NCBI RefSeq assembly: GCF_964340395.1
Contig: NC_135555.1
Span: forward strand, 20,431,447-20,495,446
Direction: 5' to 3'
Length of the DNA stretch: 64,000 bases
From: Glandiceps talaboti
Taxonomy: Eukaryota; Hemichordata; Enteropneusta; Spengelidae
Part shown: positions 2,349 to 62,500 of the stretch, piece after piece
Numbering within the stretch: position 1 is the stretch's first letter
How the letters are laid out: the number at the start of each line of letters is the position of its first letter
Notes under the pieces: generated by a model
What the model was told of the DNA's origin: nothing
What the model saw: only the letters and a program-made list of their open reading frames with translations
Database searches by the model: none
Translations under genes and position numbers: made by a program

Positions 2349-3401
2349 TTAGAAAACCGTGGCCACTGTAGTACCGCTTACGTTGGGGTCATCTGCATCG
2401 ACCGCTGCTACAGGGATAACGGAGACACATGGACAAAAAAGTGACCTCAACGCTTCCTGGAACTTTCGATACTTGAACGTGTAAATAAACGGATTAACGC
2501 ACGAGTTGCAATATGCCATGATGATGCTGAAGTTGTAGAAACTTCCGCCAACATCCACATGACCGCCAAAATTGTAGAGCAGCCACGTAAATTGGTTAGG
2601 CGACCAGCATATAATGTACACGACGAAAATCATACAGGAGGTTACGGTCAAATTTCGCTTTACAGAAAGTTTCGAGAACGCTGCTTTCCTTCTCGGGATC
2701 TCATTTGGTACGATATTGCCGGCAAGTCCGTCATTTTCCACGTTTGGTGGGTTAGGAGCAGGGTGCAGTTGTTTCGTTTGCCGCTGCAGCACAAAGATAA
2801 TCTTGCTGTATATTAATATCATAGATATCACAGGTAGTCCATATTCAACTAAGAAAGTAAGGGAACCAACCAGTTTCTGAAGCTGCAGACTCGGCCAGGA
2901 GCGATGGGCACATTCGCCGTTGTATCCGTTACCTTGGTTGAAAATGGCGTAAAAGACTTGAACGGCGGGACTGCAGAACCACATCGAAATAGCTATGATT
3001 TTGGTACGACGTCTGCTAAAGACAAATGTGTACTTCAACGGGTATACGACTGCGTAATATCGTTCGAATGACAAAGCCACCAGGTTGAATGTTGAAGCTG
3101 CGAACGAGCACCACAGTGGAAACCTTAGAATCCACAACTTACAGACCAGTTCACCATAAAGCCCCGTCTTCGGAACGGTGATATAGGGCGTAGAAAAACG
3201 TATCGCCATCAAGAGAAACGATGTGACGAGGTCGATCGCCGCTTGGTTGATGATCAGAAAATTACACTTTTGTCGGAACGACCGTACCCCAAGAAATACC
3301 AAACAGACGATGGAGTTGCCGAGAAAACCTATGGGTCCGACTACACCAGCGGTGATGAACTCAATGTCGAGTTTGGAAGCATCGGTAGAATTGCTTGCCA
3401 T
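2349..3401 (-). CDS. class A (rhodopsin-like) G-protein-coupled receptor, single exon
   Basis: A 350-aa seven-transmembrane receptor read from one uninterrupted exon. The ATG at 3401-3399 is chosen because the open frame upstream of it starts at a non-ATG codon; it is followed by an N-glycosylation sequon (NST, residues 4-6). Visible class A signatures, in order: GFLGNSIV in TM1; NQAAIDLV in place of the usual LAxxD of TM2; a Cys at the start of TM3 (LVCKLW) able to pair with the ECL2 Cys (NGECAHR); ERYYAVVYP as the DRY-type motif; CWSPNQ in TM6, a CWxP variant; and CVNPFIYTFKY as NPxxY in TM7. A short Cys-containing tail (LFCPC) could be palmitoylated. The style is that of peptide-receptor-like orphan GPCRs that are expanded and often intronless in marine invertebrates. 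The ligand cannot be inferred. It stands alone with no neighbour within 6 kb. Confidence 0.93.
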   Translation of the reverse strand: MASNSTDASKLDIEFITAGVVGPIGFLGNSIVCLVFLGVRSFRQKCNFLIINQAAIDLVTSFLLMAIRFSTPYITVPKTGLYGELVCKLWILRFPLWCSFAASTFNLVALSFERYYAVVYPLKYTFVFSRRRTKIIAISMWFCSPAVQVFYAIFNQGNGYNGECAHRSWPSLQLQKLVGSLTFLVEYGLPVISMILIYSKIIFVLQRQTKQLHPAPNPPNVENDGLAGNIVPNEIPRRKAAFSKLSVKRNLTVTSCMIFVVYIICWSPNQFTWLLYNFGGHVDVGGSFYNFSIIMAYCNSCVNPFIYTFKYRKFQEALRSLFCPCVSVIPVAAVDADDPNVSGTTVATVF

Positions 3402-4002
3402 CTTGAAGACAAAACAAGCTACGATTCGCAAAATCCAGTTAGCTCGTCAATATATAGAATGAAGTGAAGTGAAGGCACAGTATACACGTCACACAAAATA
3501 TGAGTTCTGATTCGAGAAACCCTTTACCAAATCAATCTCTAATAACATCTTAAAGCGACCACATGGGGAGTGCTACAATGTTAATGCCCTTCTTTTGATA
3601 TCATTTCAGCGTTTTTGATTACCCATGTTACATAATTTACATATTCCTTGCGGCCATTTTGAATTAAGCTAATTTAATTCATGAACAATTCTTCGAGGGA
3701 TAAAAAATAACCGTCTTACGCAAGATTGTTGCCTAAAAGAAGATGAAATGTATTTGATTAGAGTAAAAGATGGTCACGGTGCGAGGTATTATATTTTGTT
3801 GAATATTCTGGGAAATCGTAGAAATTGTAACTTTTACCTTGTTTGTTTTGTTTTTGTATTGTTTCCTTGTTATTTGAAAAAAAAATGCGGATTAACATAT
3901 TATCGGTTTTATCATATGGCAACCTGCTAGAGGTCTAAAGGCTATACTTGGCTCCGAACTCAACATCTCTCTTCAACCCATCTAGCTGAATGAGAACTCA
4001 TG

Positions 4003-4196
4003 AACCAAAAGTTGTTGTTTATGCAAATCAGTAAACCAAAAGTTGTTGTTTATGCAAATCAGTAAACCAAAAGTTGTTGTTTATGCAAATCAGTAAACCA
4101 AAAGTTGTTGTTTATGCAAATCAGTAAACCAAAAGTTGTTGTTTATGCAAATCAGTAAACCAAAAGTTGTTGTTTATGCATATCAGTAAACCACGA
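4003..4196 (+). repeat. six-copy 31-bp tandem repeat carrying POU octamer motifs
   Basis: Six copies of a 31-bp unit run without indels. The unit reads AACCAAAAGTTGTTG then TTTATGCAAATCAGTA. Each of the first five copies contains a perfect octamer ATGCAAAT, at 4021, 4052, 4083, 4114 and 4145; the sixth (4176) reads ATGCATAT. The octamer is the classical POU-domain (Oct) binding site. The array lies about 0.6 kb 5' of the GPCR start codon, so it could be a regulatory array for that gene; this is inference. Confidence 0.9.
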
Positions 4197-9538: not shown

Positions 9539-12500
9539 TTATGATGGTTTGTAGTTTGATGGTGGTTTCATACAGTTGCCATCAGGGTACCTCTTCTTAA
9601 ATCTTTCTACAACTTCAGGATCTAAGAGATGTACACCATCCACCTGATTTCCCAATGTAATCCTGTCAGGAATAATACAAACACGTCAAAGACGATGGAC
9701 ACTTTGCTTATGAGTAATAGGGTGTACCTATCATTGCTCAAACCATACTCTAGCTAATAACTTTACTTTCAACCAGCAATCAACTTACAAGTTTTCATTT
9801 GTCTGTTTTTATTACTCATAGATAAGATGCTATTATCTTTGTAATTTCTATTATATTTGTTGTGCTCGAAAAATTAATATTACTTATGCTCTTTATTGTT
9901 GAATGATGGATGGTGGCCCTATTCTTATGAAAATGAACATAAAAAAGGTGTACCAACTGGCTGTCGGAGTTACACAACTTATGAGGTTTTGCTGCTCGAG
10001 GCGTACTTCACAAGCCTTACAATTACAAAGACATTTACACATGTATAAATGTATAGCCACTAGTCGGGCAAACAAGACTAGTTGCAAGGCTATGCAGGGA
10101 TGGCATAACAGTCAATATTACCATATGCTGATAGGACCATAGATCCTCCACCGACGGTGTTAGTGGAGGGTCTATGGAGAGGAATACCAATCATTTGTTC
10201 ACTTCATGAATTATCTAGGATCTCAACTCCATTCTGAACCCCTGAAAACAACAGTTGGTTTTTCATGTATGAAGCACACCCTCACTAAGCTAATGTGGCA
10301 GTCAACAATGTATTGCCCAATAAAGAGATTTGTTACAACTTACACGACCATTACTCCTGCAATGTGTTGACAAATCAGAAAGTTACTTTTACATCGTCAA
10401 TAACTGGCATAATTTTTGAAAATTCATAGCTTCACATACAAGACAAATATTTTATTTGAACCATTCAGGAGTGAGAGTGAGATACACAACTACTGTGTCA
10501 TCATCAAAGGCTGAACACAAATACATTTTTTTTTACAAACTCACCAGTTTGGTTGTACATTATGAGGTCTGCCAAACAGTTCAATTTTACGAGTGCCGGG
10601 AGATAACCTTTCTATAAGTCCATATATTTCATCAGGTTTATGACTGGTTTCTCTTACTTCAGCAACTAACACATCACAATCTAAACCACGATTGTAGGCT
10701 GTTGCATTCCCTTTGATTCCAACCTATGAAAGAAATAAACTTCAAGTTAAAGTGCACATGGGCCAGATCTGAATGTTTTTATGTGTTATTCTTAATTCAT
10801 ATAAAGAATTGCATGGTATTTTACTTTTTTAAATGTGTTCAATCGCGAATCGTCACTTGTAACCGTAACACTGCATCTAATCAGCCTGAACAAATGCTTC
10901 GTTGACATGTTTTTTGGGTGAACTAACAAATTGTAACTGACATCAGGATTGTAGACAAAAACACATAAACATATAAACCTGACAATGTTGTATAACTATA
11001 ATAGTGTTAGTCTTTCATATATATAACACTTTCCCACACTGTGTACAAAACACAAGTATTACCTCTGGTATGGACCTATAATGACACAGTGGCCCTCTAT
11101 ATTTTCCTCAACTCCCTGGGGAGCATACAATCCATTGCAGCCTTTATAAGTGCATAGGATTAAAGCATCCATGTGACATTGCAACCTCTATACTACCAGG
11201 TCCCCAATGATACAGTTGGGTTGACTGGGGCACAAATATGGCTCAAATCATACCCAGGGACACTAGACATTCACAAACAAAATGATGGTGGCTTGGCTTG
11301 AACCAGCAACCTACAGATTGGGTCACTCTCAGCATTTGGCCATCATGACTCCATATATATGGAGGTGTTATACTCCATTTAAGGATCAAATTGATATGAA
11401 TGAATATGACACTAGATGAGTTCTCTGTTAGTGTTTACATCTTAGATAAAACCACTGTCTCAAGATGGCCAATGGCCCTTTAAATGGCTCTCTGTCTGTA
11501 CTGTCGTTTAGCATATAATTTCACATTCCAGCCGGGTGAGTGGATCAAGTCTGTTGAAAGTGTTACTGTTTTTACCTTCCATGAGGGAGGCTATGTTATG
11601 GTCATGCATGCATGTGTGCGTGTGCATGTGGATGCATCTGTCTGTCTGTCTGTCTGTCTGTCTGCATCAATCTTTTCTCATTTTAACTCACCAGACAGTG
11701 TTCTTTGCCATGGTTCAACCAATGGCCAGTTCTTCCAGTTCGTATAAGTCTCTGAAGTTGGTTGGTTTTCACCCAAATCAATTCATCACATCTCCGATAT
11801 CCCCATAATTTCAGACACTCTCTCCCAAGCTCCATGGCTCTGAAACCAAATAAAGCAGCAGAATTTACCATATGTGTTTGCATTGATCTCCTATACAGAA
11901 CAATATACATGTAAGCAGCTAAAAATACTACTAAAATGTGAAGGGAGTAATTTAGTTACAACAACATCACAAAAGTACCATTTGTTATGATTAGGGTCTC
12001 AGGTAAAGATAGTGGCAGGACTTTATTCACTGACTGACTCCATTCAGCATGGTGCAAACTGGCTATATTTGTGAAACTTGTTTGTCTCTGGGATGGTGTG
12101 TGAACCCGTCTCTTCTGGGATGCCTGAACAACATGACTAGACAGTCACACATGATGGTGAGAAATGGTGAACAAACTGAAAGTTCATAGTTCTGTTGAAT
12201 ATACACATATAAGCAAAATTGTGTACATGTATGATATCTGTATGTGACACAGTGTTGCAATATGATTTTAGTCTACAAGCTATGCAAATAAATGCTATCT
12301 ATGGGGAGAAGTTGCATTTAAAATATTAAGTAAACTGTCAGCCAGCCCTTGATTGAATCCCTCAGGTGAAAGCCCCTGACAATGTCGTGGTATAAGCTGT
12401 TGATGAGACCACAATGTAATCGATCGTTGTGCTTCATCACGTCCAGCCACTCGATTCAGTTAAAACATCATCACACACCAATAGAGGGGGTTGTTCATTG

Positions 12501-15500
12501 AGAATCTTTTCTGAAGATGACAGAAATTCGCCTACCTTCCAGTGACCCACAGGAAAATAAACCCTTCATCTTGTAAGCTTGGTACATCCAAATGTCTCAT
12601 TTCATCATCCTGCATAGTTCCATAGGGTAATTCCATGTGAATATCCCATGGTGGGTCTGCCATGACAACGGAAAATTTACCCAGTACTGGCATGTATAAT
12701 GACCTCAGGTCACACTGGATCCACTACAAGATATAGATTATGGAAGCAAATAGTCAGTATAAAGTACACACGCTAAGGCCTAAAAAAAAAAAATGTGTAG
12801 TTCCGATTACGGACAATTTTAAAATAGGTGGGTAGGTAGATTTTTTATTTTATTTTATTATATTTTTTTTCATGTGTGCATATCTAGTTCAGGTAAATAT
12901 GTTTTCCGTTGTTTTCCAAATGGTCTCTGTGTATAATGATGTAGCATAGACTGTACTTTACACATAACAGTGATCTAGGTTGTATTACAACTAACCTGTG
13001 GTGTGTAGAGTATAACATTATTACTAAAACTAACCTGTGGTGGGTAGAGTATAACTTTATTACTAAAACTAACCTGTGGTGTGTAGAGTATAACATTATT
13101 ACTAAAACTAACCTGTGGTGTGTAGAGTATAACTTTATTACTAAAACTAACCTGTGGTGTGTAGAGTATAACATTATTACTAAAACTAACCTGTGATGGG
13201 TAGAGTATAACGTTATTACTAAAACTAACCTGTGATGGGTAGAGTATAACTTTATTACTAAAACTAACCTGTGGTGGGTAGAGTATAACTTTATTACTAA
13301 AACTAACCTGTGGTGGGTAGAGTATAACATTATTACTAAAACTAACCTGTGGTGGGTAGAGTATAACATTATTACTAAAACTAACCTGTGGTGGGTAGAG
13401 TATAACTTTATTACTAAAACTAACCTGTGGTGGGTAGAGTATAACGTTATTACTAAAACTAACCTGTGATGGGTAGAGTATAACTTTATTACTAAAACTA
13501 ACCTGTGGTGGGTAGAGTATAACTTTATTACTAAAACTAACCTGTGGTGGGTAGAGTATAACATTATTACTAAAACTAACCTGTGGTGGGTAGAGTATAA
13601 CATTATTACTAAAACTAACCTGTGGTGGGTAGAGTATAACTTTATTACTAAAACTAACCTGTGGTGGGTAGAGTATAACGTTATTACTAAAACTAACCTG
13701 TGGTGGGTAGAGTATAACTTTATTATTAAAACTAACCTGTGGTGTGTAGAGTATAACGTTATTACTAAAACTAACCTGTGGTGGGTAGAGTATAACGTTA
13801 TTACTAAAACTAACCTGTGGTGGGTAGAGTATAACGTTATTACTAAAACTAACCTGTGGTGGGTAGAGTATAACTTTATTACTAAAACGAACCTGTGATG
13901 GGTAGAGTATAACGTTATTACTAAAACTAACCTGTGGTGGGTAGAGTATAACGTTATTACTAAAACTAACCTGTGGTGGGTAGAGTATAACGTTATTACT
14001 AAAACTAACCTGTGGTGGGTAGAGTATAACTTTATTACTAAAACTAACCTGTGGTGGGTAGAGTATAACGTTATTACTAAAACTAACCTGTGGTGGGTAG
14101 AGTATAACGTTATTACTAAAACTAACCTGTGGTGGGTAGAGTATAACGTTATTACTAAAACTAACCTGTGGTGGGTAGAGTATAACGTAATTACTAAAAC
14201 TAACCTGTGGTGGGTTGAGTATAACTTTATTACTAAAACTAACCTGTGGTGGGTAGAGTATAACATTATTACTAAAACTAACCTGTGGTGGGTAGAGTAA
14301 AACGTAATTACTAAAACTAACCTGTGGTGGGTAGAGTATAACATTATTACTAAAACTAACCTGTGGTGTGTAGAGTATAACTTTATTACTAAAACTAACC
14401 TGTGGTGTGTAGAGTATAACATTATTACTAAAACTAACCTGTGGTGTGTAGAGTATAACATTATTACTAAAACTAACCTGTGGTGTGTAGAGTATAACTT
14501 TATTACTAAAACTAACCTGTGGTGTGTAGAGTATAACGTTATTACTAAAACTAACCTGTGATGGGTAGAGTATAACTTTATTACTAAAACTAACCTGTGG
14601 TGGGTTGAGTATAACTTTATTACTAAAACTAACCTGTGGTGGGTAGAGTATAACATTATTACTAAAACTAACCTGTGGTGGGTAGAGTATAACGTAATTA
14701 CTAAAACTAACCTGTGGTGGGTAGAGTATAACATTATTACTAAAACTAACCTGTGGTGTGTAGAGTATAACGTTATTACTAAAACTAACCTGTGATGGGT
14801 AGAGTATAACTTTATTATCTTCTGATCCTTTACCTATATCTGCAATGTCAGATTTACTCTGTTGTTGCTGGTGACCTGGCACTCTCTGGAAATCTATTTC
14901 ATAATGTACATACTGGGGATAAAATGAAACATTGGTGGATTACTAAACGATCATATCAGATTAGGAATAAAATCTGAGATAGGAAAACAGTCGACTGATA
15001 GAGGAAAACAGTCAATTAGTAGAGGCAGGGACGTAGGAAAAGCTGGTCTTGAACAAATGAATGATTCCATCAAATCCTTATGGTCATACTGATCACCTTT
15101 AATATCCTGTTTTTCTCAACTTTTTAGGGGTTTTTTTGTGTACAATAAATATTGCCCTGGTTGAACGATTAATGACCAGGTTTCTGTATTATGTAATTAT
15201 ACCCTAAATATAGGCGGTCATGCTTGCATGGCACTGGTATCATGGGATTGAATTATGGGCCTTTAAAACAATGCTTATATACATGGCACACTTTCTCTTT
15301 CATCAAACATCATAATTGAATTATTTGAAACTTTAAACCAGCCCCTTCTCTTCTCTGTTTTTCTTCATGTCCTTGTAATTTGCATAATCAGTAATGTACA
15401 TTTTGCTTTCCTTCTCTGTCATAACTACTTCCAATTGAATATCTGCTCAAGTTTTGCATTTAACTCTGACAAATCAAACCACAGATGTCTAATAAATAAT

Positions 15501-18500
15501 TCCGCAAGCAATTTGGATTTTCAAGATCTATCCCAATGACTACCCATGCTATTAATCAAGACATACTCTCGTTTGTTAAACTCAAAAAAACCTTAGAGTG
15601 AACCTGGTTCCTTACCTTGCATGTGTCCATGTGAAAACAAGTATTCAAGAATGAACAATCCCCCAAAGACTCTGTAAAACAAGAGAAAGAGAGAGAATTG
15701 CAGTAATTATTTTAAGACTTTGTCATATTCTCTTCTTTTTTTGTGATGACTGTCTCTACTTGTACATTTACAGGACTAAAACACTCATTAACACTACTCC
15801 TGGGTTACATCGCTGACTTGATTAACAGTAAACCAGTAACTCATTCACTTCACTCAAACAACAAAACTCTACTTCATAACCCCATTGTAATACAAAGTCA
15901 TATGGTGAGCATGCATTCTCACAAGCAGCACTAGTCTTATGGAACAGTATACAACTTGAACTTCATTCGTCATTAACTATCTATAATTTCAAGAATTATA
16001 TCAAGACACATCTGTTTGCAAGAGCTTTCTAACTTTTTACATCAATCTACTATTGTTCCTGTTCAGCACCATAGAACATTACATAGTATACAAATTCGTT
16101 GATTGATTGATTGATTATCTTTCAAAGTAACCAGTGACTATGTCCACATATGTGTAAATGATTTTCTCATTAAAAAGTTGAGATAGGAAATACGATATTT
16201 AAGATTCAAACTCACCATCTGTATGTTTGTTGATTATTCTTCTAAAGTGAAGCTGAAAGGTGAGAAAAAATAAATAAGTTGTGTTTTATATAAGTCAGTA
16301 AAGAATTACAGTGTCACTGTGTGGTGTGATAGTGTTACTACCAAACCAGAGTGACTACAGAGTGTCGATTAGGTGATGCAGAGTTTTTCATATCTCACAC
16401 AACATGTTTTGCTACAAATTACATAAAATCAAATACAGGCATGTTACATCAGATTGTTAAGACATTAGGGTATTGACTTACCTTATCACATGGTATGTCT
16501 TTGTTGATCATCTTCATACATTCTTCCTTGGTTCCATGGGGACAAAATTCCTTCAGTTGATTTCCTACAATAAAAAATCAAAAAAGTTGACATTCCTTTC
16601 TTGAAAAAAATTAGTATAAATCATTATCCTTAGTTGTAGAAATTCTCTAGTCAGTATAGATGTGAAAGGGGTTAGATGATGAATGACGGTGTCCTGACAA
16701 GGTGTAACTTACAGACTAACAGTGAAATCACCTAAAGGGAAAGCCACTCCGGGAAATAAAGCATTTTCATAATTTTGGGTTCAGAAGAGTTATTTCATTA
16801 TTTCTATCCACAGCAAAAATTACCCAAACAGGTCACATTACAACATCAACTTGATATTTCTCTCAAATTACAAGCCGTAGTGATGTAAAAAAAAAAATGA
16901 TGAAATGACCCACCAGAACCCAAAGTTATGAAAATGATTTCATTACCTGGAATTGTATTCCCCTTTAACATAGTGTTACTGGTTGTATGTATTTCACTAC
17001 AATACAGGAATGTTTTTGGCAAAGAAACAAAAAAGTACACCTTACCTTGTGATTTAAACTTTTCAACCACTGATTGCTCCTTAGCAGTTGGTTTACTCAA
17101 CAAATCAAAGATCTCCTCACCCATCTTCTTTGTCTATATTTAAAGATAAAAAACAAAAAAATTAATATCAAGAACACAAAATTTGAAAAATGACCAAACT
17201 GTAAATCCATATTTACGAAGTCAAGATTAGAAATTCCAAAAAATGAAACAAATGGGTTGTCCATTTTTTCAAAACAATTTTTAATTGAATGTTTATCTGG
17301 AATAACACCGATTACATAAGGGATAATCGCACAATGTCACACAAGGTCAATAAATGAATGTTTTTGGGGGAGGGGGACTGTTATCAGTATGATTGCTGAA
17401 CACCACTACTAACCAAATTTCGCAAACTTTCACGCCTTCAACTATAACAGGTTCTATATTTACTACAGGGATGTTGATAAGTTGATTAAAATTTACTTCT
17501 AATGTGATACACAGTGCTGGGTTTCCGGTAATATGTTTTCCAAATTTTACATTGCATCAACAGTAGCGGTGTGACCGCTACAATTTTCATCATGGTTTAC
17601 ATCCTATATAAACGTGTCAATGTCGCACTTATGAATGTTTGTTATGGGGGAGGGGGTTTTGTCCTAAGGGAAAAAAGTTTGTTTACTGAGCTTGTGCAAC
17701 ATTGTGCAATCATCCCTAGAGATTACTAAAAATCTCACCAATCTTCACAAGGGAGGTTCATATTATTACTATTAAAATGACCATTAAAACCTCACATGAA
17801 TCGGAATGCAAAAATAGTGTTTCCAAAAATACAATGCACTGGATGATATTCTAAGTGCCTGTCTGATAATCTTTACTCATGAGTAATGGAATTAGCATAA
17901 TTTATAAAAACGGTGATTCGCCACTGATAATCTGTCTTGGAGTGAACTGGCAAAGCCGAGTCTAAACCAAGACATTACAGTTTGATGATATTTTTGTACT
18001 TACTTCTTGTTCTTTGATAGACGGCATTGATAGAAGACTTTCTACACTGTCAGCCTCAGCTTCTGTAGAGACTTGTCTAGTAACTAGTTTGACTGATGGT
18101 TCATTCTTAGTTGGTGAATCACTGAAAGTCAATTAAAAACATACCACAGATTGGTCATACATAGATTTATGTAACAAAGCAAGATTTCAGTTTAGTTGCA
18201 AATTTGAGGCTGCAAATCTAACATACAAATCTAAACAAGTACTATTTCAATTCTCAAAGATGGTATCCTCTCTACAAGCTCTCGGTAAAGTTGTTGTGTT
18301 TGTTCAACCAGGATCTGGAAAGGTTTCTATAATTTCACCTTGGTTCTGTTTGATTTCCACTGTGTATCATACATTTCAGAATGCATTCAAGTTAAGAGTT
18401 TGGCTAGCATCATGACACAGATTTTGTTCAACATGATTCTCTAGCTGATTACCCCAGATTTTTGCATTAGTGATATCGTATCAGCTGGACCATGAAATCA

Positions 18501-21500
18501 ACCTAGACAACTGTCTTGTTCTAGGCCAACTTTCATTAAAAGCTCTACCAGACAACTGATTCTCCACCTGTATTTGAGTCCTGTTCCAAACTAAGTCTTT
18601 AAACTCATAATACTTACTGTTCTCTCTTCCTTTTCCTAGATCCAGATGGTTTATCTTTCTCATTTAGTTGGTTGGACACGGCAGTCAACTGTATACCAAA
18701 CACATCATATACCAGCAGAGAAAAGTCAAATGAAAGAGAAGGAGAGATCAAAGATGAGTATTACAAACCACCATGGATTGAATAAAAGTGCTTACTATGA
18801 TTGCTGTTCACTGATGTTCCTTTATTATTGCAGCATCTTGACATAAGCTACTACAGTGGCAATAAAGGTTTCAGCTTACTAAGATTTGTAAGATAGATAC
18901 AAACTAAAAATATTTTTGTGCAATGTGGTAGATTACACTAGTGGGTGCTAGCGGTGCATCTGTTGTGTGGATATAAAATTATAATCACCCTGTAATCAAG
19001 ATAGTGTAAACATTGGAAGTCCCCAAAATGTACAGGGCAAGTTTATGGATTGGAAGTCATCAGAAATGCCACCCTACTGTGAGTATAATTAAACTAACAT
19101 CCACACCATAGCTTATATGAACATATTGCAACAACAGCTTAATTAGACAAAAGTTAGATTACTACTGCTACGTTTCTTCCTCTTGACAGTACATGTATAC
19201 CATACTCTTTTCATTATTTTTTCGGATTTTAAATTTGTATTTCTTTTACATTTCATCTAGGTCTTACTCTATGAAAATACTGGTTCATATACTTTGGTAA
19301 AATGAAACTAAAATGACCAGTGTGAAAGGAATGGACACAACTGTGATTTCATAGATAAACTCAATTGATAAGAAGACCCATTACAATTACACTTTTTGGA
19401 AAGTTCAATTAAAAAAAATCAATGCATCATGTGTGGTATCTAATAACAGGCAGTCATAAGATACAACGATTCCAATATCTAGACATGAGTGAAGTTGACC
19501 TTACTAGAAACACTATTTTTATAAACAATCTTGCAATACAATGGATTGAACCTTAGACTGAGATTGAACACAAGACATCTATTTTACAACTTCCTGTTAT
19601 CAGATACCACACTTGGTGTTGATTGTTTGAATTGGACTTTCCAAAGAGTGTAATTGTTTATATACAGGGGTCTTATCAGGCAATTGAGTTTATCTTGAAA
19701 ATCATAGTTGTGTCTATTCCTTTCACTTCGGTCATTTGAATTTCATTGTAAAATGAACAGCAGTACATACTACTACCCTAATATAGTTTACGCCTGAAGG
19801 CTGGCATTGGATTTTACTTTGGCTTGCATGTGGTATGATAAACAGTAGTGTAAATGCAATAAATATTTGAAATGATGACAGAATGTGTGCTCTTTCTGAG
19901 ACCAAGAATATCATCTCAATAATTCTTGGCAGGAAAATATAGCACAAAGTATTACTGTACGGTACTTTGTAAACAGACATCTCAATTCTTTGAATGCCTG
20001 CTCTGATAAGTACCATGGTTAATGTCAAGTTTACACTACAATGTTGAACATAGACACTTTATATTTCCATTAAAGCTACACTCTCTGCAACTAGTACATT
20101 TTTTTTTTGAAAATGTTTTGTTAGTTAAATTAGTTTACTTGTAATATCGTAAACCCTGAACATTATTGAACCCCCTCTAGGTTAATGTATTTTTTTTGTA
20201 GCTGTATACATGATATGGTACACAAAATCAAATCAATTTTATTTTGGGTCCACACCCAAAAATCAATGCCCTCAACGGCAATTATAATTTCAACCTGTTT
20301 CTGCACAATTTACGGATAAGATAACCATTTAACATGTACAATGTCTAATTATGCAGCCATTGCCACATTACTAGCCCAGAGACTTGGCTATCTTGATTGA
20401 AAAGGACACTCGCAACCCAATATGTCAAGTTAGAGAGCCTAGTCTGTAGGTTACAACATTACATACATTATGCAAAGTCTTGTTTCCGGCCTACCATAGG
20501 TAAAAGTTTGAAAATAAATCAATTTCATATCACAAAAAGTATAATGATTGACTAACAAACCATATTTCTCATTAATTTACTTTTGTTAGTAAATGGGAAA
20601 TCTTAGAAAATAAACAATCTTACAATTACCAATCTGAGATGGCTGAAAAAGGGTACGAGTGTGGCCACTAAAGGTTAAAAAGTTGTTATATAGTTTTGGT
20701 TTTGGTATAATTTGGGAAATGCAAAATGTTGGTGACGAGGACGGTTTTCTATTTACTTTTACCTTAGAATGTTCAGCTGATGTTACAAGTACACAGGTTT
20801 GTCCGTCTGGTGTTCCGCCATCTTTGATCCTGGATATCAAAAAATGAAAATTTTATATAAATCAGTACTTTTCACACCATGATTGCTTTGTTTGTCTACT
20901 AACTAGCCGACCAGTAACAAAGTAAAAAATACTACCATAACTGTACTCTATACTTTACACCTGTGGGTGGTATGGTGGTACCAGTGACCACCTCTGGTAG
21001 GAGTATGCAACCAATATACAATGTACATTCAAGAGACTCCATTTTAGATCAATTTTAAACAAAATGCGATGCCCCATTTTAGACCATTACAGGTTTTTAG
21101 AAGATCAAATTTTAGACCAAAATATTACATTATTACAGACAACATGAACTTGAACACTCATCCGAGTTCCTGTAACAGTGAAGGAACATGTACTAGGACC
21201 CAAGGGAAAGTGGTGTGTCACTAACACTCACTGCAATGATAAGTATGCTGGTTAGGCATCCCTAAATTTCTGGCTTGGCTTTCATAGTCTCATTGAGGAA
21301 CCCTGTGGACTGCATTGCTTTTATCAGTGGCCAGTACTTTTATCAAATGTAATTCAATGTACTTACTCAATAAGTTCTTGAGCTGAAAACTTCTGTAGAA
21401 TACTCTCTACTGTGCCCTGCGATACTTCTTTATTCAATGCCTGTTGATAACAACATGCAAACATATATATGTATAGCTCTGGATATATATCTGCTCGACA

Positions 21501-24185
21501 CTTCTTGAACCATAGCAGAGGTGAGAAGACGTGTCGAAACCCTGCAGCGTATAACATCCAGAGCTAATGTATCATGACTATATGTATGAATCAATATTAG
21601 GATCTGCAAAGATTAATCATTAATTTCCAGAAAAATGACTTTAACTGACGTTATTCCTCTCATTGTTGGATTGTTTTCTACATAATATTGCATGATTTGG
21701 ATACGATGCCAAGTTAAGAGTCTTCAGCCTCTGTCAAGTTTGTAACACAAGTCCAAAGTCTGCCTCAAGATCAAATACACATGATGGTACAAAGAGTGAT
21801 TACGGCCCGGCTGGGTGTCTACTAAAGGCTTCACTGTGTATATGACAAGAATCCCCCTGCCTGTTAGACTAACATGATAACTATAACTTGGCATTATCAT
21901 GTTAAGAGACCTGATTCGTTCACTTCAAAGTCCACAGCCATATGCCATATTCGGATTACTGATGTTCTTGCTATTTTGAATGTAAGGATCACAAGAATGT
22001 CCCAGATTTGGCAAAGTGAGGGCTAAAATGTGTGTGACACTGTCATGGCTACTGATCCAAATGAATGGCAATTGATACATAAAGCCATGAACAAAATAAC
22101 ATATATGTAACAGAACTCCATATCTTAAAAGAGCTAAGTGGTAATCTACAACACCTAAATCAACCCCCTTCCTCCCTAACCCTATACAGACACTGCCACA
22201 CAAACTGTTGTACATACACCTACCTTTGTAACTGTTGCCTGTAAAGAAGGTGAATCTGTTGGCAACATTAATGCATGATCACACAATACTTCTAACAACT
22301 TCTTCTCAATTTCAGGATCGATGTACGCTAAGTCAACAGTAGGTTGTACAGTAACTGGACTACTACTTCGTGAAGATGGTCCTGATTGGGAAGGTGCTGG
22401 AGTTTCTTCTGTGGTAAACAAATAGGATAAAAATAAATAATGAATTTTTTAAAACCTGAACGAGACAGTATATCAAAGTTAGCAGGGCACATAGATTACT
22501 AATCATTGTATCTACCTTTAGACAACCACATTTATGAGGTGATATAGTCTATTCATCCATGGAAATCAATTATCACATATCAACATCAGCCATCTAACAT
22601 TTGCTCAACCGAAAAAGACTTAAGCAGGATTACAATACAGTTGATTGACATACATGTACAGATTTATCAAAGCTAGGGAGTATGAGGTAGGGTTAGGATT
22701 GCAATAGGAATAGGTTTGACCCCCTAACACTGGCCTGATTTGTGACATCAACCACAATGAATCCCCCTTGTAAACTTGATTTAGACTACAACTGACAGCT
22801 GACAATAAATTAGACATACACAGTTACTTTTTCTATTCCTGTATTTTCACAACCAAGAATATCATACTTATTCAAATCACAATTGAGTAAGAATTGAGAG
22901 TTATCATTCACGTGTATAACCTGGGTTCATGTTTGCAATATTCAATGTACAGATGAAAGAGTATGTATTTCGTTGCTTGGTTTTATCATTCATAGTGCTA
23001 CCTTTCTACCATACTGTTCACATACAGTTGCTGCAGCCTACACACTGCATGCATTGGATTGGATACTCCCAAAGGACTAAAAAAAATATATACAGGGCTG
23101 TTGAGCCATTATTGGTCCGGGATAACGAATGTACATGTAGTGCTATGATAGCATTGGGATGGGACTTAAATTGTGCATCAATATCATTACTTTTATTTTG
23201 ATTAAATTCCATGCTAATAAAGGCTCATTTTGCCAATTTTTTGGAATTGTATATGAATTCAGGATTGGACTAAAATTTAAAATATGATTGACTGTTAGTT
23301 GTGAGTAATACTTGTCGTCTCATTGAGCTATAGATATATTGGATTCAGAACAGAAAGATGATCCTATTCAATCCTAATGGGATGACTCGGATCCACTTAC
23401 AGATAACACTTAATGTGAGTTTCAGGGATCTAATCATGGGCCTTTAACTGAAGTTGTGTCAAACACGGAATTGTTGAGAAATGTGATATAAAATACTTGG
23501 CTGACCTACTAGTAATATCCCCCCCCCCCCCCGCCGTTATGATAAGTTGTGTATTGGGGTTCCACAGTCTCCTTTGATTTAGTCTGGATGACCAGCCTGT
23601 GGTTCTAACTCTGTGGGTGAAGGTATAAATCGTAACGATACTAGATTACCTTTGATTAAAATTCACCCAATGATCGACTTTTGAATCCACTCCCTCCCCT
23701 CAAACCAGCTACTGTTGTACTCTCCTTTTAAATGAACTTCACTCTGTTTATTCACAGTGTGGATGTATTAGAGACGATACATCCATGGTCACAGACAATA
23801 ACCGCTCAAATTTTAGCCTGGAATCCATGTGGATATGGGAGTTTTGGCTACTCCAAATTTGTCTCTGAATTTATTCGCTGGCGTAACATAATCAGTCCAA
23901 GACATGTACACTTTCAAATATAATGGATATACTTTCCATTGACACTCTGAAGAGGACAGAGCTGACGGCGAGCATCAAAGATCTTTTGATTTTTACGATG
24001 TGTAATAACAACAATGAAGTAGCTTTATATCATTATCAATGTCTAGTCTCTGTTTTGTCTCTCTTTCCAGTCTTACCTGCACTGGCGCCGAGAGCCTGTC
24101 GCTCCCGTTTCCTTCTTTGCATACGCTCTCTAAGACTCTCTTGTTTCTTTTTGAGAGCTACAATATCACTCCACGTATCAGACAT
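9539..24185 (-). CDS. METTL3: METTL3, catalytic subunit of the mRNA m6A methyltransferase (15 coding exons)
   Basis: Transfers methyl from SAM to N6 of adenosine in mRNA, in the nuclear METTL3-METTL14 complex. Coding exons on the minus strand, all with GT-AG borders and matching phases: 24077-24185, 22224-22408, 21367-21440, 20763-20829, 18618-18688, 18004-18121, 17046-17133, 16482-16564, 16216-16252, 15616-15671, 14790-14912, 12536-12723, 11692-11839, 10545-10723, 9539-9662. The sum is 1650 nt, 549 aa (human 580). Visible features: N-terminal [20 protein letters not shown] leader helix; KSRK-like basic NLS area (RKRKRE); two CCCH zinc fingers (C245-C253-C263-H267 and C283-C289-C295-H299); catalytic DPPW at 360-363; gate loop [19 protein letters not shown] near the C-terminus. 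METTL14 would have EPPL, so this is METTL3. A CTTGTTGACAG tract just before the ATG may be an acceptor for a 5' UTR intron. The 11th exon runs into the 39-bp splice-junction minisatellite. 549 aa assumes its first donor is used; the last donor would give about 1147 aa. Confidence 0.96.
11040..11355 (-). mobile_element. tRNA-derived SINE in METTL3 intron
   Basis: Read on the minus strand, the 5' part has an RNA polymerase III A box TGGCCAAATGC (11342-11332) and, 27 nt further on, a B box GGTTCAAGCC (11304-11295). A body of about 230 nt follows, with CCCAGTCAACCCAACTG and GTATGCTCCCCAGGGAGTTG. This is the layout of a tRNA-headed SINE inserted antisense to nothing: it is in the same direction as METTL3, in the intron between exons 14 and 13. 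The 3' end is not sharply defined. Confidence 0.75.
12774..12952. mobile_element. partial copy of TAGGCCT-terminated MITE (family 2)
   Basis: The stretch begins TAAGGCCTAAAAAAAAAAAA then GTTCCGATTACGG, and continues with CTAGTTCAGGTAAATATG and ATGGTCTCTGTG-like words also found at 26.0 kb and in the full copy at 32.1 kb. Only the left half is present. It abuts the end of the METTL3 minisatellite. Confidence 0.7.
12990..14816 (-). repeat. 39-bp minisatellite made of the METTL3 exon-11/intron junction (46 periods, 47 splice donors)
   Basis: From the first donor (exon end at 14790) to the last (12996) is 1794 nt, exactly 46 x 39, so there is no net indel. On the gene strand the unit is GTTAGTTTTAGTAATAAN, then GTTATACTCTACCCACCACAG with single-base variants. 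The first 12 nt match the start of the intron; the other 27 nt match the end of the METTL3 exon that encodes NKVILYPSQ. Translated in the host frame the unit is VSFSN(N/K)VILY(P/T)(P/S)Q, 13 residues with no stop, contiguous with the zinc-finger exon. Human METTL3 has RLFPPQ at this place, so VILYPPQ is genuine coding sequence that was captured. Variants recur in blocks: GGGTTGAG occurs at 14212 and 14602, 390 nt (10 units) apart. Confidence 0.97.
14790..14912 (-). CDS. METTL3: METTL3 coding exon 11, minimal form (zinc-finger / methyltransferase linker)
   Basis: Acceptor TATCCCCAG precedes TATGTACATTATGAA, giving YVHYEID, the end of the second CCCH finger. A low-complexity linker follows ([15 protein letters not shown]), then KVILYPSQ and the donor CAG|GTTAGT. 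The exon begins and ends in phase 0, 41 codons. Using any later donor in the array lengthens it by whole 13-codon units. A second donor-like site (ATAG|GTAAAG) inside the exon would break the frame, so it is not favoured. Confidence 0.9.
15745..16117 (+). mobile_element. LINE (CR1/L2-like) 3' fragment in METTL3 intron
   Basis: The end of a non-LTR reverse-transcriptase [23 protein letters not shown] in one frame, then, after a one-base frame change near 15900, [18 protein letters not shown] and finally KTHLFARAF followed by TAA. The LWNS(I/L)P and THLFARAF blocks are typical of CR1/L2 ORF2 C-termini. It ends in a (TTGA)n tail (16098-16117), the usual tail of this clade. It is 5'-truncated, degenerate and antisense to METTL3. 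Confidence 0.85.
16729..16970. repeat. fold-back element in METTL3 intron 7
   Basis: Two arms of about 80 nt are inverted copies. The left reads CTAAAGGGAAAGCC then TTTTCATAATTTTGGGTTC; the right, reversed, reads TTAAAGGGGAATAC then TTTTCATAACTTTGGGTTC. The spacer is about 70 nt. No coding capacity; probably a MITE. The open frames across it are incidental. Confidence 0.8.
18945..19150 (+). repeat. dispersed repeat family 3, copy 1
   Basis: Shares a colinear series of words with 32690-32880: ATAATCACCCTGT, GTAAACATTGGAAGTCCC, GTACA-GGCAAGTT, GACTATAATTAAAC-like, TAGCTTAT and CAACATGTTGC-like. Neither inverted ends nor coding potential are evident. It lies in METTL3 intron 4. Confidence 0.7.
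19300..19747. repeat. large palindromic fold-back element in METTL3 intron 4
   Basis: Arms of about 170 nt are inverted copies. The left reads AATGAAACTAAAATGACC, GTGAAAGGAATGGACACAAC, GATAAACTCAATTG and TGTGGTATCTAATAACAGG. The right, reversed, reads AATGAAATTCAAATGACC, GTGAAAGGAATAGACACAAC, GATAAACTCAATTG and TGTGGTATCTGATAACAGG. The spacer is about 110 nt. The transcript of this intron could fold into a long duplex. Confidence 0.9.
20226..20460 (-). mobile_element. probable LINE 3' UTR remnant
   Basis: On the minus strand the stretch ends TTTTGGGTGTGGACCC then AAAATAAAATTGATTTGATT. The terminal (ATTTG)-type tail is that of CR1/L2-like LINEs. No reverse-transcriptase sequence is recognisable, so the call rests on the tail only. 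Confidence 0.4.
23813..23858. repeat. fragment of short fold-back family 4
   Basis: TTAGCCTGGAATCCATGTGG and GGGAGTTTTGG match one arm of the complete fold-back at 28816-28912. Confidence 0.6.
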
Positions 24186-59540: not shown

Positions 59541-62500
59541 TTTTTTACCATGTGTCTTTTACGAAATTGTCATTTTAGCCTTTTTATAATTTTTGTAACC
59601 AGTATGAGAATGAGAAAGCAGTGTTTGCTGAGGTTGATAACCCCAGGAACAGAAAACCGCAAACCATGTCAAATGCCCCTAGTTAGTGCCCGCCGACGAA
59701 GTCTGAGATGGGGACTTATGGATTGGGTTCCGTCCATCTGTCCGTCTGTCCAGAGCCGTTTCTTGGAGATGCCTGGACCGTTTTTTTTTTCAAACTTGGT
59801 ACAGGGGCAACATGCAATGGCATACATATACATGTCAATTTGTTTCATGATACAATCCAATATGGCCGCCTAGCAGCCATTTTGTTTGCAAATTTTCCCT
59901 GTCCATCAAAGCCATAACTCAGACAAGTTTGAACAGATCTCATTCAAAGTTGGTATTAGGACAGTGTTCTATGACATACATGTGCATATTCATTGTTGTC
60001 ATGGTACGATCCAATATGGCCGCCTAGCAGCCATTTTGTTTGCGAATTTTCCATGTCCAAAGCCATAACTGAGACATGCTTGAACAGATCTCATTCAAAG
60101 TTGGTATTAGGACAGTGTTCTATGACATACATGATTGTGCATATCCATTTTCGTCGTGATACAATCCGATATGGCTGCCTGGCAGCGATTTTGTTGGCAC
60201 AGTTTCCAAGTCCAAAGCCATAACTCAGGCATGCTGGAACACGTCCGTCCCACTGTAATTTCATGTCAGACTCGTCAAGTATGATTCATATTATTTCTGG
60301 TGGATAGTTTTCCTCGCCTTCCTGAGGAGATGAGTAACATAAGGACTACATGTATCACCACAAGTAAACAAATAAGTAATGACAAACTCTGATGTCGAAA
60401 GTATTTTCCAGCTGAATTAAGAATAATATTTGAGAATTTTATTTATTATATTATGCATAAATTTTGAGAATGGTAGAGAAAATAGTCAATTTGACCCTTC
60501 CTTTGAGTGCCATGGAACAAATGATGTATGTGTAGGCATGCGATGGCATGATGTAAAATGACAGGGTTTAAATCTCATTTCCTGTTCAGATATGTACACT
60601 GTGGCATATGCACTGTTCGAAACATAAAAATGAATGTCGATGAATGTTGAATGTGTATAAAATTCATGATGCAACACAGGAACAGATAAATGTAAGTCAG
60701 AGGGAAGATTGGGATATTTTTTCTCTTTTTGAAACAACACTACTTTTTTTCAACTGTTCGATCAAAGGGATTGATTCAGAAACTAGTGAAATTTGTGATA
60801 ATTACAACTATTCAGGGTGTAGGCCAAAAAAGAGAGAGAATTGTTTCTGGTCAATGTGCGCATCACTTAAATTCCCTCGCGTTAATTTTTTTTTTAATGT
60901 GTTTGTCCAGCCCATGTAGCCTCTGCAGATCTGTGGGAAAACACAAAAACTATCCCTCCCTACATTAATTGCTGCTGTAGTGAAGACAACTGCAGATTAC
61001 CAAGCAAATTATAAATGTATATCTACCCAGCATACAGTGCATATTTGCTCTAAAGTACTAAATAAAAAGAACAGTAACTGCCATAAATAGTAGATTGAGT
61101 GACAGGTTTGACAATTAAAAAAATGGGGGGGGGGGAAGCATATGTAGACTCTTCATCATGAGTATTTATGATTAGACAAAGCAAATACATGTCTCTGTAT
61201 GAGACTCAAAGACTACACTTAGAGATGTAGATAAGGGTATGGTCCGTATAGCCAGTAAAAACAACATGCTACTCCACGCGAATGTTTTGCCAGCTTTTTT
61301 TTTTCTTCTAGGAATTTATTTTAAGATTCTTTGTTTCAACCACTATATTTCCATTGATGGACAGATTCATAGGTCATGTCCATCGATATTACTGCCTTCT
61401 TTTCACATATTGACCAGCACTTTTAAAATTAGCGACATCCTTGTATCTTATAACATATCCTTACCAGGACATCTACGCATCAGTAGTTTATTTATGTACA
61501 GGATGCGTCATATTAGTTTAAACATTTCGTGGAATCTTTGGTATTTATGCCAACTCCTAGTATCTCAATACGGCAGCGTGATATCATGTCTGAAAGTGGA
61601 GATTGTCATGTTAAAAATATACATTGAAGTGTACCGGTACAATATATGCACATCGTTTTACAAAATCTCTTTTTTGGAACATATTTTAGAGAGGAAATCA
61701 AAGTTTGCTCAAAAGGGAGATTAATTGATATATTGAAATCTGTGTCAACATTGTGATTAACGAATACTAGTTCCTGTATAAGTTTGTTATCATAAATTGT
61801 AGCTGTCAAGGTCAAGTTTGACATTTACAGTTACATGACTTTGAATCATTCCATGCCTTCCGATTCAGCAGATCACATGACATCCTCATTTACATAAGGA
61901 GGTCACTTGTATGCAAATTAAGAGAATGTAAGCTATCCCTGCATACCAACTTTTACTCTGTCGACAGTCTATCTGTTCAGGTCTGGGTCAGTCTAAAGGC
62001 TGAGGCTGTCTGGAATTACCATGTCTTTCTGTCACACTAATTTTCTTTCAGTTGTTGCTGTCTGTCTGTTTTCTTTCGTTCTCTTTCTTCTCTATCTGCA
62101 GAATATTATTGGATAGTCTTTCTCACTGATAACCCTCGCAAATGCATTATACACAGTACACTGTTACACACTTACAGAGTTCAGTGGCTTTTGCAGTCAA
62201 GTTCTAAAATTAAGCATATCCAACTGCAGACATCAGATAATTTATACCAATTAAGTCTAAATGTGTATAGTAGTATAGGAAGGTTGATGTAGAGGTCTAA
62301 ATTGTTGTGAGTAACCTAAATCCAACAACAGGTCATTGTCAGTTAGCACAAATGATATTGATTGTTTTGAATTTTTTATAAACTATGTACAACTCAAATC
62401 AAACTAAATCAATCCTTGTAGACATCAGTGGTTTTATTGGTTTTTTAGAACCAATACCAGTAAATAGAGAACCCCGCCAAATTAACATTTATCCTAGTCT

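What the first reader, a model, noticed from the sequence alone, without database searches (positions are those of the whole stretch)
12990..14816. A METTL3 exon/intron junction has become a 46-period minisatellite: 47 serial in-frame splice donors
Seen: 46 exact 39-bp periods; each carries 27 nt of METTL3 exon end plus 12 nt of intron start, with donor CAG|GTTAGT. The unit is open in the METTL3 frame, phase 0 on both sides, so each donor choice yields METTL3 with 0-46 copies of a 13-residue block. Known: the exon ends between the CCCH fingers and the MT-A70 domain, and human METTL3 has RLFPPQ there, so the captured VILYPPQ is authentic coding sequence. Inference: a length-variable, splice-selectable linker in the m6A writer. 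I know of no described precedent.
Basis: partly seen in the sequence, partly recalled or inferred. Interest (0 to 1): 0.92.

Follow-up and report, generated by a model that had tools for sequence, protein, structure and literature searches.

The report
Repeated splice-site minisatellite in METTL3
In an acorn worm, the end of one exon of the m6A-writer gene METTL3, splice site included, has been copied head-to-tail 46 times into the following intron; the same kind of array sits at other exon ends in this genome, is a known oddity in lancelets, and is probably spliced out silently rather than used to vary the protein.

Summary
47 registers exactly 39 bp apart (46 CAG|GTTAGT, one GTTCGT) run from the 3' end of METTL3 exon 11 through most of intron 11, minus strand, in the hemichordate Glandiceps talaboti. 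All 47 donor choices keep the frame open. (1) There are precedents: lancelet "mirages", minisatellites spanning exon/intron boundaries and reported not to disturb splicing, and the human IFI6 minisatellite, whose repeats do supply extra used donors. (2) METTL3 is one of a class here: of 25 donor-bearing minisatellites whose flanks I read (METTL3 included), 16 start at an exon end, 9 of these judged without a protein match. (3) Among the 16 the unit is a multiple of 3 in 3 only, and in the 15 others reading past the first donor meets a stop within about 2.2 units; so the exon-proximal donor must normally be used, and METTL3's open frame looks like chance. (4) The one G. talaboti METTL3 protein seen has zero array copies. 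Best reading: a mirage spliced at its first donor, with at most minor leakage. Unusual are the scale in a hemichordate and the natural test of choice between equal donors. No RNA could be examined.

The parts
9539..24185 (-). METTL3 gene, 15 coding exons, 549 aa (coding part only)
   Evidence: exon model (its last exon end 9540 corrected to 9539); 100% identical protein P0001; PDB METTL3; MT-A70
14790..14912 (-). METTL3 exon 11; its last 27 nt (14790-14816) are the first array unit
   Evidence: preceded by ATCCCCAG; donor CAG|GTTAGT
12990..14816 (-). 39-bp minisatellite (46.9 copies), exon end + intron start
   Evidence: a 30-nt unit pattern is found 46 times in the 590-Mb genome at up to 3 mismatches, all of them here
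14784..14792 (-). authentic (exon-proximal) donor CAG|GTTAGT, last exonic base 14790
12990..14753 (-). 46 further donor registers, every 39 bp, last exonic-type bases 14751 down to 12996; one (13893) changed to GTTCGT
   Evidence: the recalled-matrix donor score 8.35 is reached by 46 of the 47 registers and by 0 of 982 non-donor GT sites of the gene
12724..14789 (-). METTL3 intron 11 (2066 nt) if the first donor is used
12536..12723 (-). METTL3 exon 12 (WIQCDL..., with the DPPW motif)
12975..12977 (-). first in-frame stop if the whole array is read through unspliced
   Evidence: after 645 codons counted from the start of exon 11

Best explanation
It is a 'mirage': a minisatellite seeded by tandem duplication of a 39-bp piece straddling a 5' splice site, then expanded into the intron by further duplications of single units and blocks. 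The exon's own end is unit 1. The spliceosome chiefly uses the exon-proximal donor (14790) and removes the other 46 with intron 11, so METTL3 is normally unchanged. Because the 39-bp unit happens to be in frame and open, occasional use of a later donor would only add 13-residue blocks; I expect at most minor leakage. Shown: the array, its exon origin, its restriction to this locus, its membership of a class in this genome, and the frame incompatibility of the other class members read. Inferred: origin by slippage or unequal exchange, first-donor choice, low leakage.
For: Structure. Unit found only at this locus, so locally born. Block duplication: six-unit run IJCCJA at units 30-35 and again at 36-41, a length reached by 1 of 500 shuffles; units 1-2 (the exon end and its neighbour) recur at units 7-8. 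Class: flanks of 24 other donor-bearing arrays read (L041-L064); 15 start at an exon end, 6 of the 15 with a protein match: isoleucyl-tRNA synthetase, SAP domain, ERR-type receptor, METAP2, neuron navigator, PKD-type channel (just below Pfam's cut-off). An automatic exon signature is met at 14 of 23 array starts against 35 of 163 control AGGT sites, Fisher p 1.9e-4. Nominal period divisible by 3 in 3 of 16; reading on past donor 1 meets a stop within 2.2 units in 13 of 13 and, read by eye, in the two later ones. The listed G. talaboti METTL3 has zero copies; a search with the array frame returned that protein alone; none of 120 orthologs fetched holds the ILYPxQ-type motif twice. Mirage literature: passages.
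Against: No RNA was seen, so first-donor use in METTL3 is inferred; the annotated protein may be a prediction whose RNA support I could not check. The array donors are as good as the authentic one (same 9-mer; 46 of 47 score alike; U1 pairing -8.2 kcal/mol, inside the -6.8 to -12.2 range of the gene's other donors), and recalled in-vitro work tends to favour the intron-proximal of two equal donors. METTL3 is the only one of the 16 with an open unit, which selection for use would also give. 9 of the 24 other arrays were not counted as starting at an exon end, and 9 of the 15 that were rest on an open frame and an acceptor-like site. The automatic test and my reading disagree on 5 arrays (L047, L056, L063 fail it; L045, L049 pass it).
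Confidence: 0.82

Rival explanations
1. IFI6-like leakage that matters: one or more of the later donors are used at a readily detectable level, so METTL3 is made as a mixture of 0, +13, +26 ... residue forms. (Overlaps with the main reading, which allows minor leakage.)
For: All 47 choices are in frame and open. In human IFI6 two downstream repeat units are used as donors, giving three mRNAs (passage). The stretch from YVHYE to the conserved W varies from 29 to 63 residues among the 110 of 120 orthologs that could be scored, and PDB constructs of the MTase begin only a few residues before the W (W is residue 5 in 5il0_A, 7 in 9g4u_A), so an insert there is plausibly tolerated.
Against: No protein with a block was found. 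By my count of the columns 1 of 10 changes between units is synonymous, against 24 of 117 possible single changes. The other junction arrays cannot be read this way. Lancelet mirages are reported not to disturb splicing.
Confidence: 0.3
2. Regulatory array: the 46 extra donors soak up U1 and tune METTL3 splicing or intron retention, with no change in protein.
For: Outside the array none of 982 non-donor GT sites of the gene reaches the array donors' score. Predicted accessibility of the array donors is no worse than that of most real donors of the gene.
Against: Purely predictive; nothing ties it to METTL3 function, and similar arrays occur in unrelated genes.
Confidence: 0.1
3. Recursive or mini-intron splicing: each period reads GT...AG, and each CAG|GT could be acceptor as well as donor.
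For: Each 39-nt register from GT to CAG is a GT-AG unit.
Against: 39 nt is very short (general knowledge); the three units examined have no yTnAy branch-like site, and the four examined as acceptors have T-poor tracts, 29-35% T against 41-76% at the gene's own acceptors.
Confidence: 0.03
4. Assembly artefact (false expansion).
For: Long tandem arrays are error-prone in assemblies (general knowledge).
Against: 14 distinct unit types in a non-uniform order; many similar arrays in the same assembly. Exact copy number was not checkable.
Confidence: 0.03

Closest known systems
Lancelet 'mirages' (Adh3, globins BflGb6/BflGb9, troponin C, PGBD5)
   Same: Minisatellite-like tandem repeats spanning exon/intron boundaries, many units carrying AG/GT signals, concerted evolution of units; reported not to interfere with regular splicing (passages).
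   Different: Here a hemichordate, 47 registers, unit in frame and open; lancelet cases also include 3' boundaries. Length and somatic instability, reported there, was not testable here.
Human IFI6 (6-16, G1P3) minisatellite
   Same: A minisatellite whose repeat units provide several splice donors (passage; Turri et al. 1995 seen only as a cited title, the paper is not held). That it starts at an exon end with a 12-nt unit in phase is recalled.
   Different: Unrelated gene and unit; use of downstream donors is reported for IFI6 but unknown here.
Rogers-type intron gain by tandem duplication of AG|GT
   Same: A duplicated AG|GT segment next to an exon (idea cited in the passage).
   Different: Here the array lies in an intron; no new intron is shown, and the intron's position in other species was not tested.

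Membership tests
[quoted passage not shown]
   27 nt exon + 12 nt intron per unit, unit 1 is the exon end
Mirage | Units carry AG/GT splice signals | tested here: met
   47 of 47 have CAG|GT, 46 of 47 CAG|GTTAGT
Mirage | Does not interfere with regular splicing | not testable with these tools
   no RNA; the listed protein with zero copies is compatible
Mirage | Length instability, also somatic | not testable with these tools
   one assembly only; block duplication inside the array is compatible
Mirage | Recurs at several genes of the genome | tested here: met
   15 of 24 further arrays read begin at an exon end, 6 of them with a protein match
IFI6-type multi-donor minisatellite | Unit in phase, so that later donors give longer proteins | tested here: met
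   47 of 47 open
IFI6-type multi-donor minisatellite | Downstream repeat donors are actually used | not testable with these tools
   no RNA; no protein with the repeat found
METTL3 ortholog | MT-A70 domain, best match METTL3 rather than METTL14 | tested here: met
Coding repeat under protein-level selection | Excess of synonymous differences between units | tested here: not met
   1 of 10 changes synonymous by my count of the columns; 24 of 117 possible changes are. Few changes, so a weak test

The most novel reading that the evidence does not exclude
Hemichordates, like lancelets, carry a genome-wide process that preferentially amplifies 5' splice sites into minisatellites, and their spliceosome reliably picks the exon-proximal of dozens of identical donors; METTL3 is the rare member whose unit is in frame and open, so that leaky donor choice makes a low-level series of m6A writers with linkers lengthened in 13-residue steps, varying with array length between individuals.
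Probability: 0.2. Interest if true: 0.72.

Novelty: new member of a known kind. Interest (0 to 1): 0.46.

Why it matters
The METTL3 array alone is a striking but explicable mirage. The class around it matters more: one animal genome holds many natural experiments in which an exon is followed by a few to over a hundred near-identical donors. In most of those read, any choice but the first would ruin the protein, so they test directly how the spliceosome ranks equal 5' splice sites. They also extend mirages, which I know of in print only from lancelets, to a hemichordate, and bear on where new minisatellites and introns are born.

Tried and rejected
Tried and rejected: (a) the array as a coding exon under constraint: changes between units are mostly non-synonymous and no protein with them was found. 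(b) Units as acceptors or recursive sites: weak. (c) m6A autoregulation: 0 DRACH motifs in the 1827-nt array. (d) RNA structure hiding the later donors: predicted accessibility does not fall along the array. (e) A dispersed satellite: the unit is found only here. (f) Eight single CAGGTTAGT sites (L001-L008) were printed as an exon control, but six were not turned to the donor strand, so I did not use them. (g) Triple-donor hits against the reversed pattern (1409 vs 652; 836 vs 533, with the excess on one strand only, 494 vs 196 and 342 vs 337; 459 vs 247; single CAGGTNAGT 21443 vs 20040; single CAGGTTAGT 4566 vs 5214) suggest more arrays at donor words than expected, but long arrays count many times, so this is not a clean test. 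(h) Papers: the listings (9 papers; 4; 1; 4; 10 of 155; 12 of 372) showed no title on hemichordate mirages or on donor arrays in METTL3; one search found none; (minisatellite + hemichordate) listed 2 papers, of which I saw one passage of one (PMC3902484, on lancelet). Passages of PMC2572611 and PMC3039753 added only the Turri citation and an unrelated minisatellite.

Rows dropped and judgement calls: L054 was left out of the automatic exon test (its array starts over 360 nt inside the intron), hence 23 not 24 arrays. Exon calls by protein match: 7 of 16 including METTL3; the other 9 rest on an open frame from an acceptor-like site to the donor (L047 has a weak DEAD match, E 0.048). L049 (F-box exon) was counted as not junction-spanning because its main array lies about 1.4 kb into the intron; L061 as not, because the exon is the ERM C-terminus with its stop and the array follows the stop. 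L046, L055 and L057 have mixed unit lengths; I used the nominal period. In L046 and L047 only 5-6 exonic nt match the next unit. The arrays were the first listed in contig order, not a random sample.

Full report
What is there. The array is as described. On the minus strand, from 14816 down to 12990, a 39-bp unit is repeated without insertion or deletion (46.9 copies; 47 donor registers all 39 apart). 46 of 47 registers read CAG|GTTAGT; the one at 13893 reads CAG|GTTCGT. The gene is METTL3: fifteen exons with GT-AG introns give 549 aa, 100% identical to an NCBI protein named METTL3-like of the acorn worm Glandiceps talaboti; that protein's contig length, 28,109,324, equals the length of the contig holding the window. 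Exon 11 (14912-14790) ends ...NKVILYPSQ| and exon 12 starts |WIQCDL at 12723, phase 0. The unit is the last 27 nt of exon 11 plus the first 12 nt of intron 11.

Frame. All 47 donor choices leave an open METTL3 frame, 549 to 1147 aa. This is less telling than it looks: 2 of 3 minus-strand frames are open through the array, 27 of 39 nt are exon to begin with, and a unit length divisible by 3 has a chance of one in three. Changes between units fall in nine columns; by my count one of ten changes is synonymous, where 24 of 117 possible single changes would be, so there is no sign of protein-level constraint, though ten changes make a weak test.

Age and origin. VILYPPQ before the W is old coding sequence: Ptychodera has [11 protein letters not shown] and a coral (Porites) [12 protein letters not shown], Saccoglossus [12 protein letters not shown]. 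Of the 120 orthologs fetched (of 2757 matches), none holds an ILYPxQ, LYPPQ or LFPPQ motif twice, and in the 110 that could be scored the stretch from YVHYE to the W is 29 to 63 residues and ends in Q; 10 could not be scored by the pattern, three of them because they have PQY. The 30-nt unit pattern occurs 46 times in the 590-Mb genome at up to 3 mismatches, all in this array. Unit types show a six-unit block repeated at units 30-35 and 36-41, a run length that 1 of 500 shuffles reaches, and units 1-2, the exon end included, recur at 7-8. So the array was born here from the exon end and grows by block duplication.

Donor quality. By a recalled donor matrix the array donors score 8.35; 46 of 47 array registers reach that, 10 of the gene's 13 other real donors do, and none of 982 other GT sites of the gene does. 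Pairing to the U1 5' end (recalled) is -8.2 kcal/mol against -6.8 to -12.2 for the other donors. The units look poor as acceptors: T-poor tract and no yTnAy branch-like site in the units examined. Predicted accessibility does not fall along the array.

A class in this genome. A scan of the whole genome for three CAGGTNAGT spaced 10-40 nt gave 1409 hits against 652 for the reversed pattern; for AAGGTRAGT 836 against 533, the excess being on one strand only; for CAGGTTAGT 459 against 247. Single CAGGTNAGT sites are 21443 against 20040. Long arrays count many times, so these are only a guide. I then read the flanks of 24 further arrays (ten, eleven, three). In 15 of 24 the array starts at what reads as the 3' end of an exon. 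Six of the 15 have a protein match: isoleucyl-tRNA synthetase (46 bp; PDB E 3.5e-07), a SAP-domain exon that I recall as RAD18 (44 bp; Pfam E 3.1e-06), an estrogen-related-receptor exon (20 bp; E 4.9e-09), a PKD-type channel exon (46 bp; E 1.5e-4, slightly below Pfam's cut-off), METAP2 (37 bp; E 9.8e-14) and a neuron-navigator exon (34 bp; E 6.9e-06). The other nine rest on an open frame from an acceptor-like site to the donor; they include arrays of 81 and 120 copies (L047, L050). Where I measured it, the exonic stretch shared with the next unit is 37, 27, 23, 18, 15, 6 and 5 nt in seven of the 15. Nine of 24 were not counted (L041, L045, L049, L051, L052, L054, L060, L061, L064); L049 has an F-box exon with degenerate copies at its end but its main array lies deeper in the intron, and L054 and L061 lie beyond an exon end or a stop codon. 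An automatic test, an open frame from a pyrimidine-preceded YAG to the first donor, is met by 14 of 23 arrays and by 35 of 163 control AGGT sites (p 1.9e-4), and by 9 of METTL3's 13 internal real donors. It disagrees with my reading in five: L047, L056, L063 fail it, L045 and L049 pass it.

The test of the splice-selectable idea. If later donors were generally used, units should be multiples of 3 and open. In the 16 junction arrays, METTL3 included, the nominal period is a multiple of 3 in three (39, 36, 48), no excess over one third (P of 3 or fewer 0.17). Reading on past the first donor meets an in-frame stop within 0.02 to 2.18 units in 13 of 13, in 9 of them before the second donor, and likewise in the two later arrays (read by eye). 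Only METTL3 is open. The class includes conserved housekeeping genes, so the exon-proximal donor must normally be chosen; that is an inference from frames, not from RNA. METTL3 then looks like the member that is in frame by luck.

What is known. Lancelet globin, Adh3, troponin C and PGBD5 genes carry tandem repeats spanning exon/intron boundaries, named mirages; [quoted passage not shown] The human IFI6 minisatellite does provide several used donors (passage of PMC4526556; Turri et al. 1995 seen only as a reference, not held). I saw no paper on mirages in hemichordates in the listings, whose library lacks most subscription journals.

Verdict. A real and striking array, a new member of a known kind, in a hemichordate and with many companions in the same genome. 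Use of later METTL3 donors is possible at a low level and is untested. The most valuable follow-up is RNA: which donor wins when dozens are equal.

Noticed in passing
genome G000, e.g. loci L042-L044, L046-L048, L050, L053, L055-L059, L062, L063: Other exon-end minisatellites with a splice donor in most units (nominal unit 20-48 bp, up to about 120 copies), in isoleucyl-tRNA synthetase, METAP2, an ERR-type receptor, neuron navigator, a PKD-type channel and others.
   Followed up: partly
19881-20016 (-): SNORA11-like H/ACA snoRNA in METTL3 intron 4, 40.3 bits against a gathering score of 36, same strand as METTL3.
   Followed up: no
2349-3446 (-): Single-exon rhodopsin-family GPCR reading frame (7tm_1, E 4e-38) downstream of METTL3.
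   Followed up: no
14790-14816 (-): The functional exon end carries PSQ where Ptychodera, Saccoglossus and Porites have PPQ and 41 of 47 registers have CCA at that codon; the same TCA variant recurs in 5 other units, so the exon end may exchange sequence with the array.
   Followed up: partly
4003-4193; 59840-60241: Two other tandem arrays in the window, 31 bp x 6.2 and 155 bp x 2.6; their relation to exons was not examined.
   Followed up: no
locus L061: Array with a donor-like unit shortly after the stop codon of an ezrin/radixin/moesin C-terminal exon: a 3' UTR minisatellite or a 3' UTR donor.
   Followed up: no
12990-14816 (-): The array RNA holds 46 GUUAG and 91 UAG words, possible sites for UAG-binding splicing proteins (recalled).
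   Followed up: no
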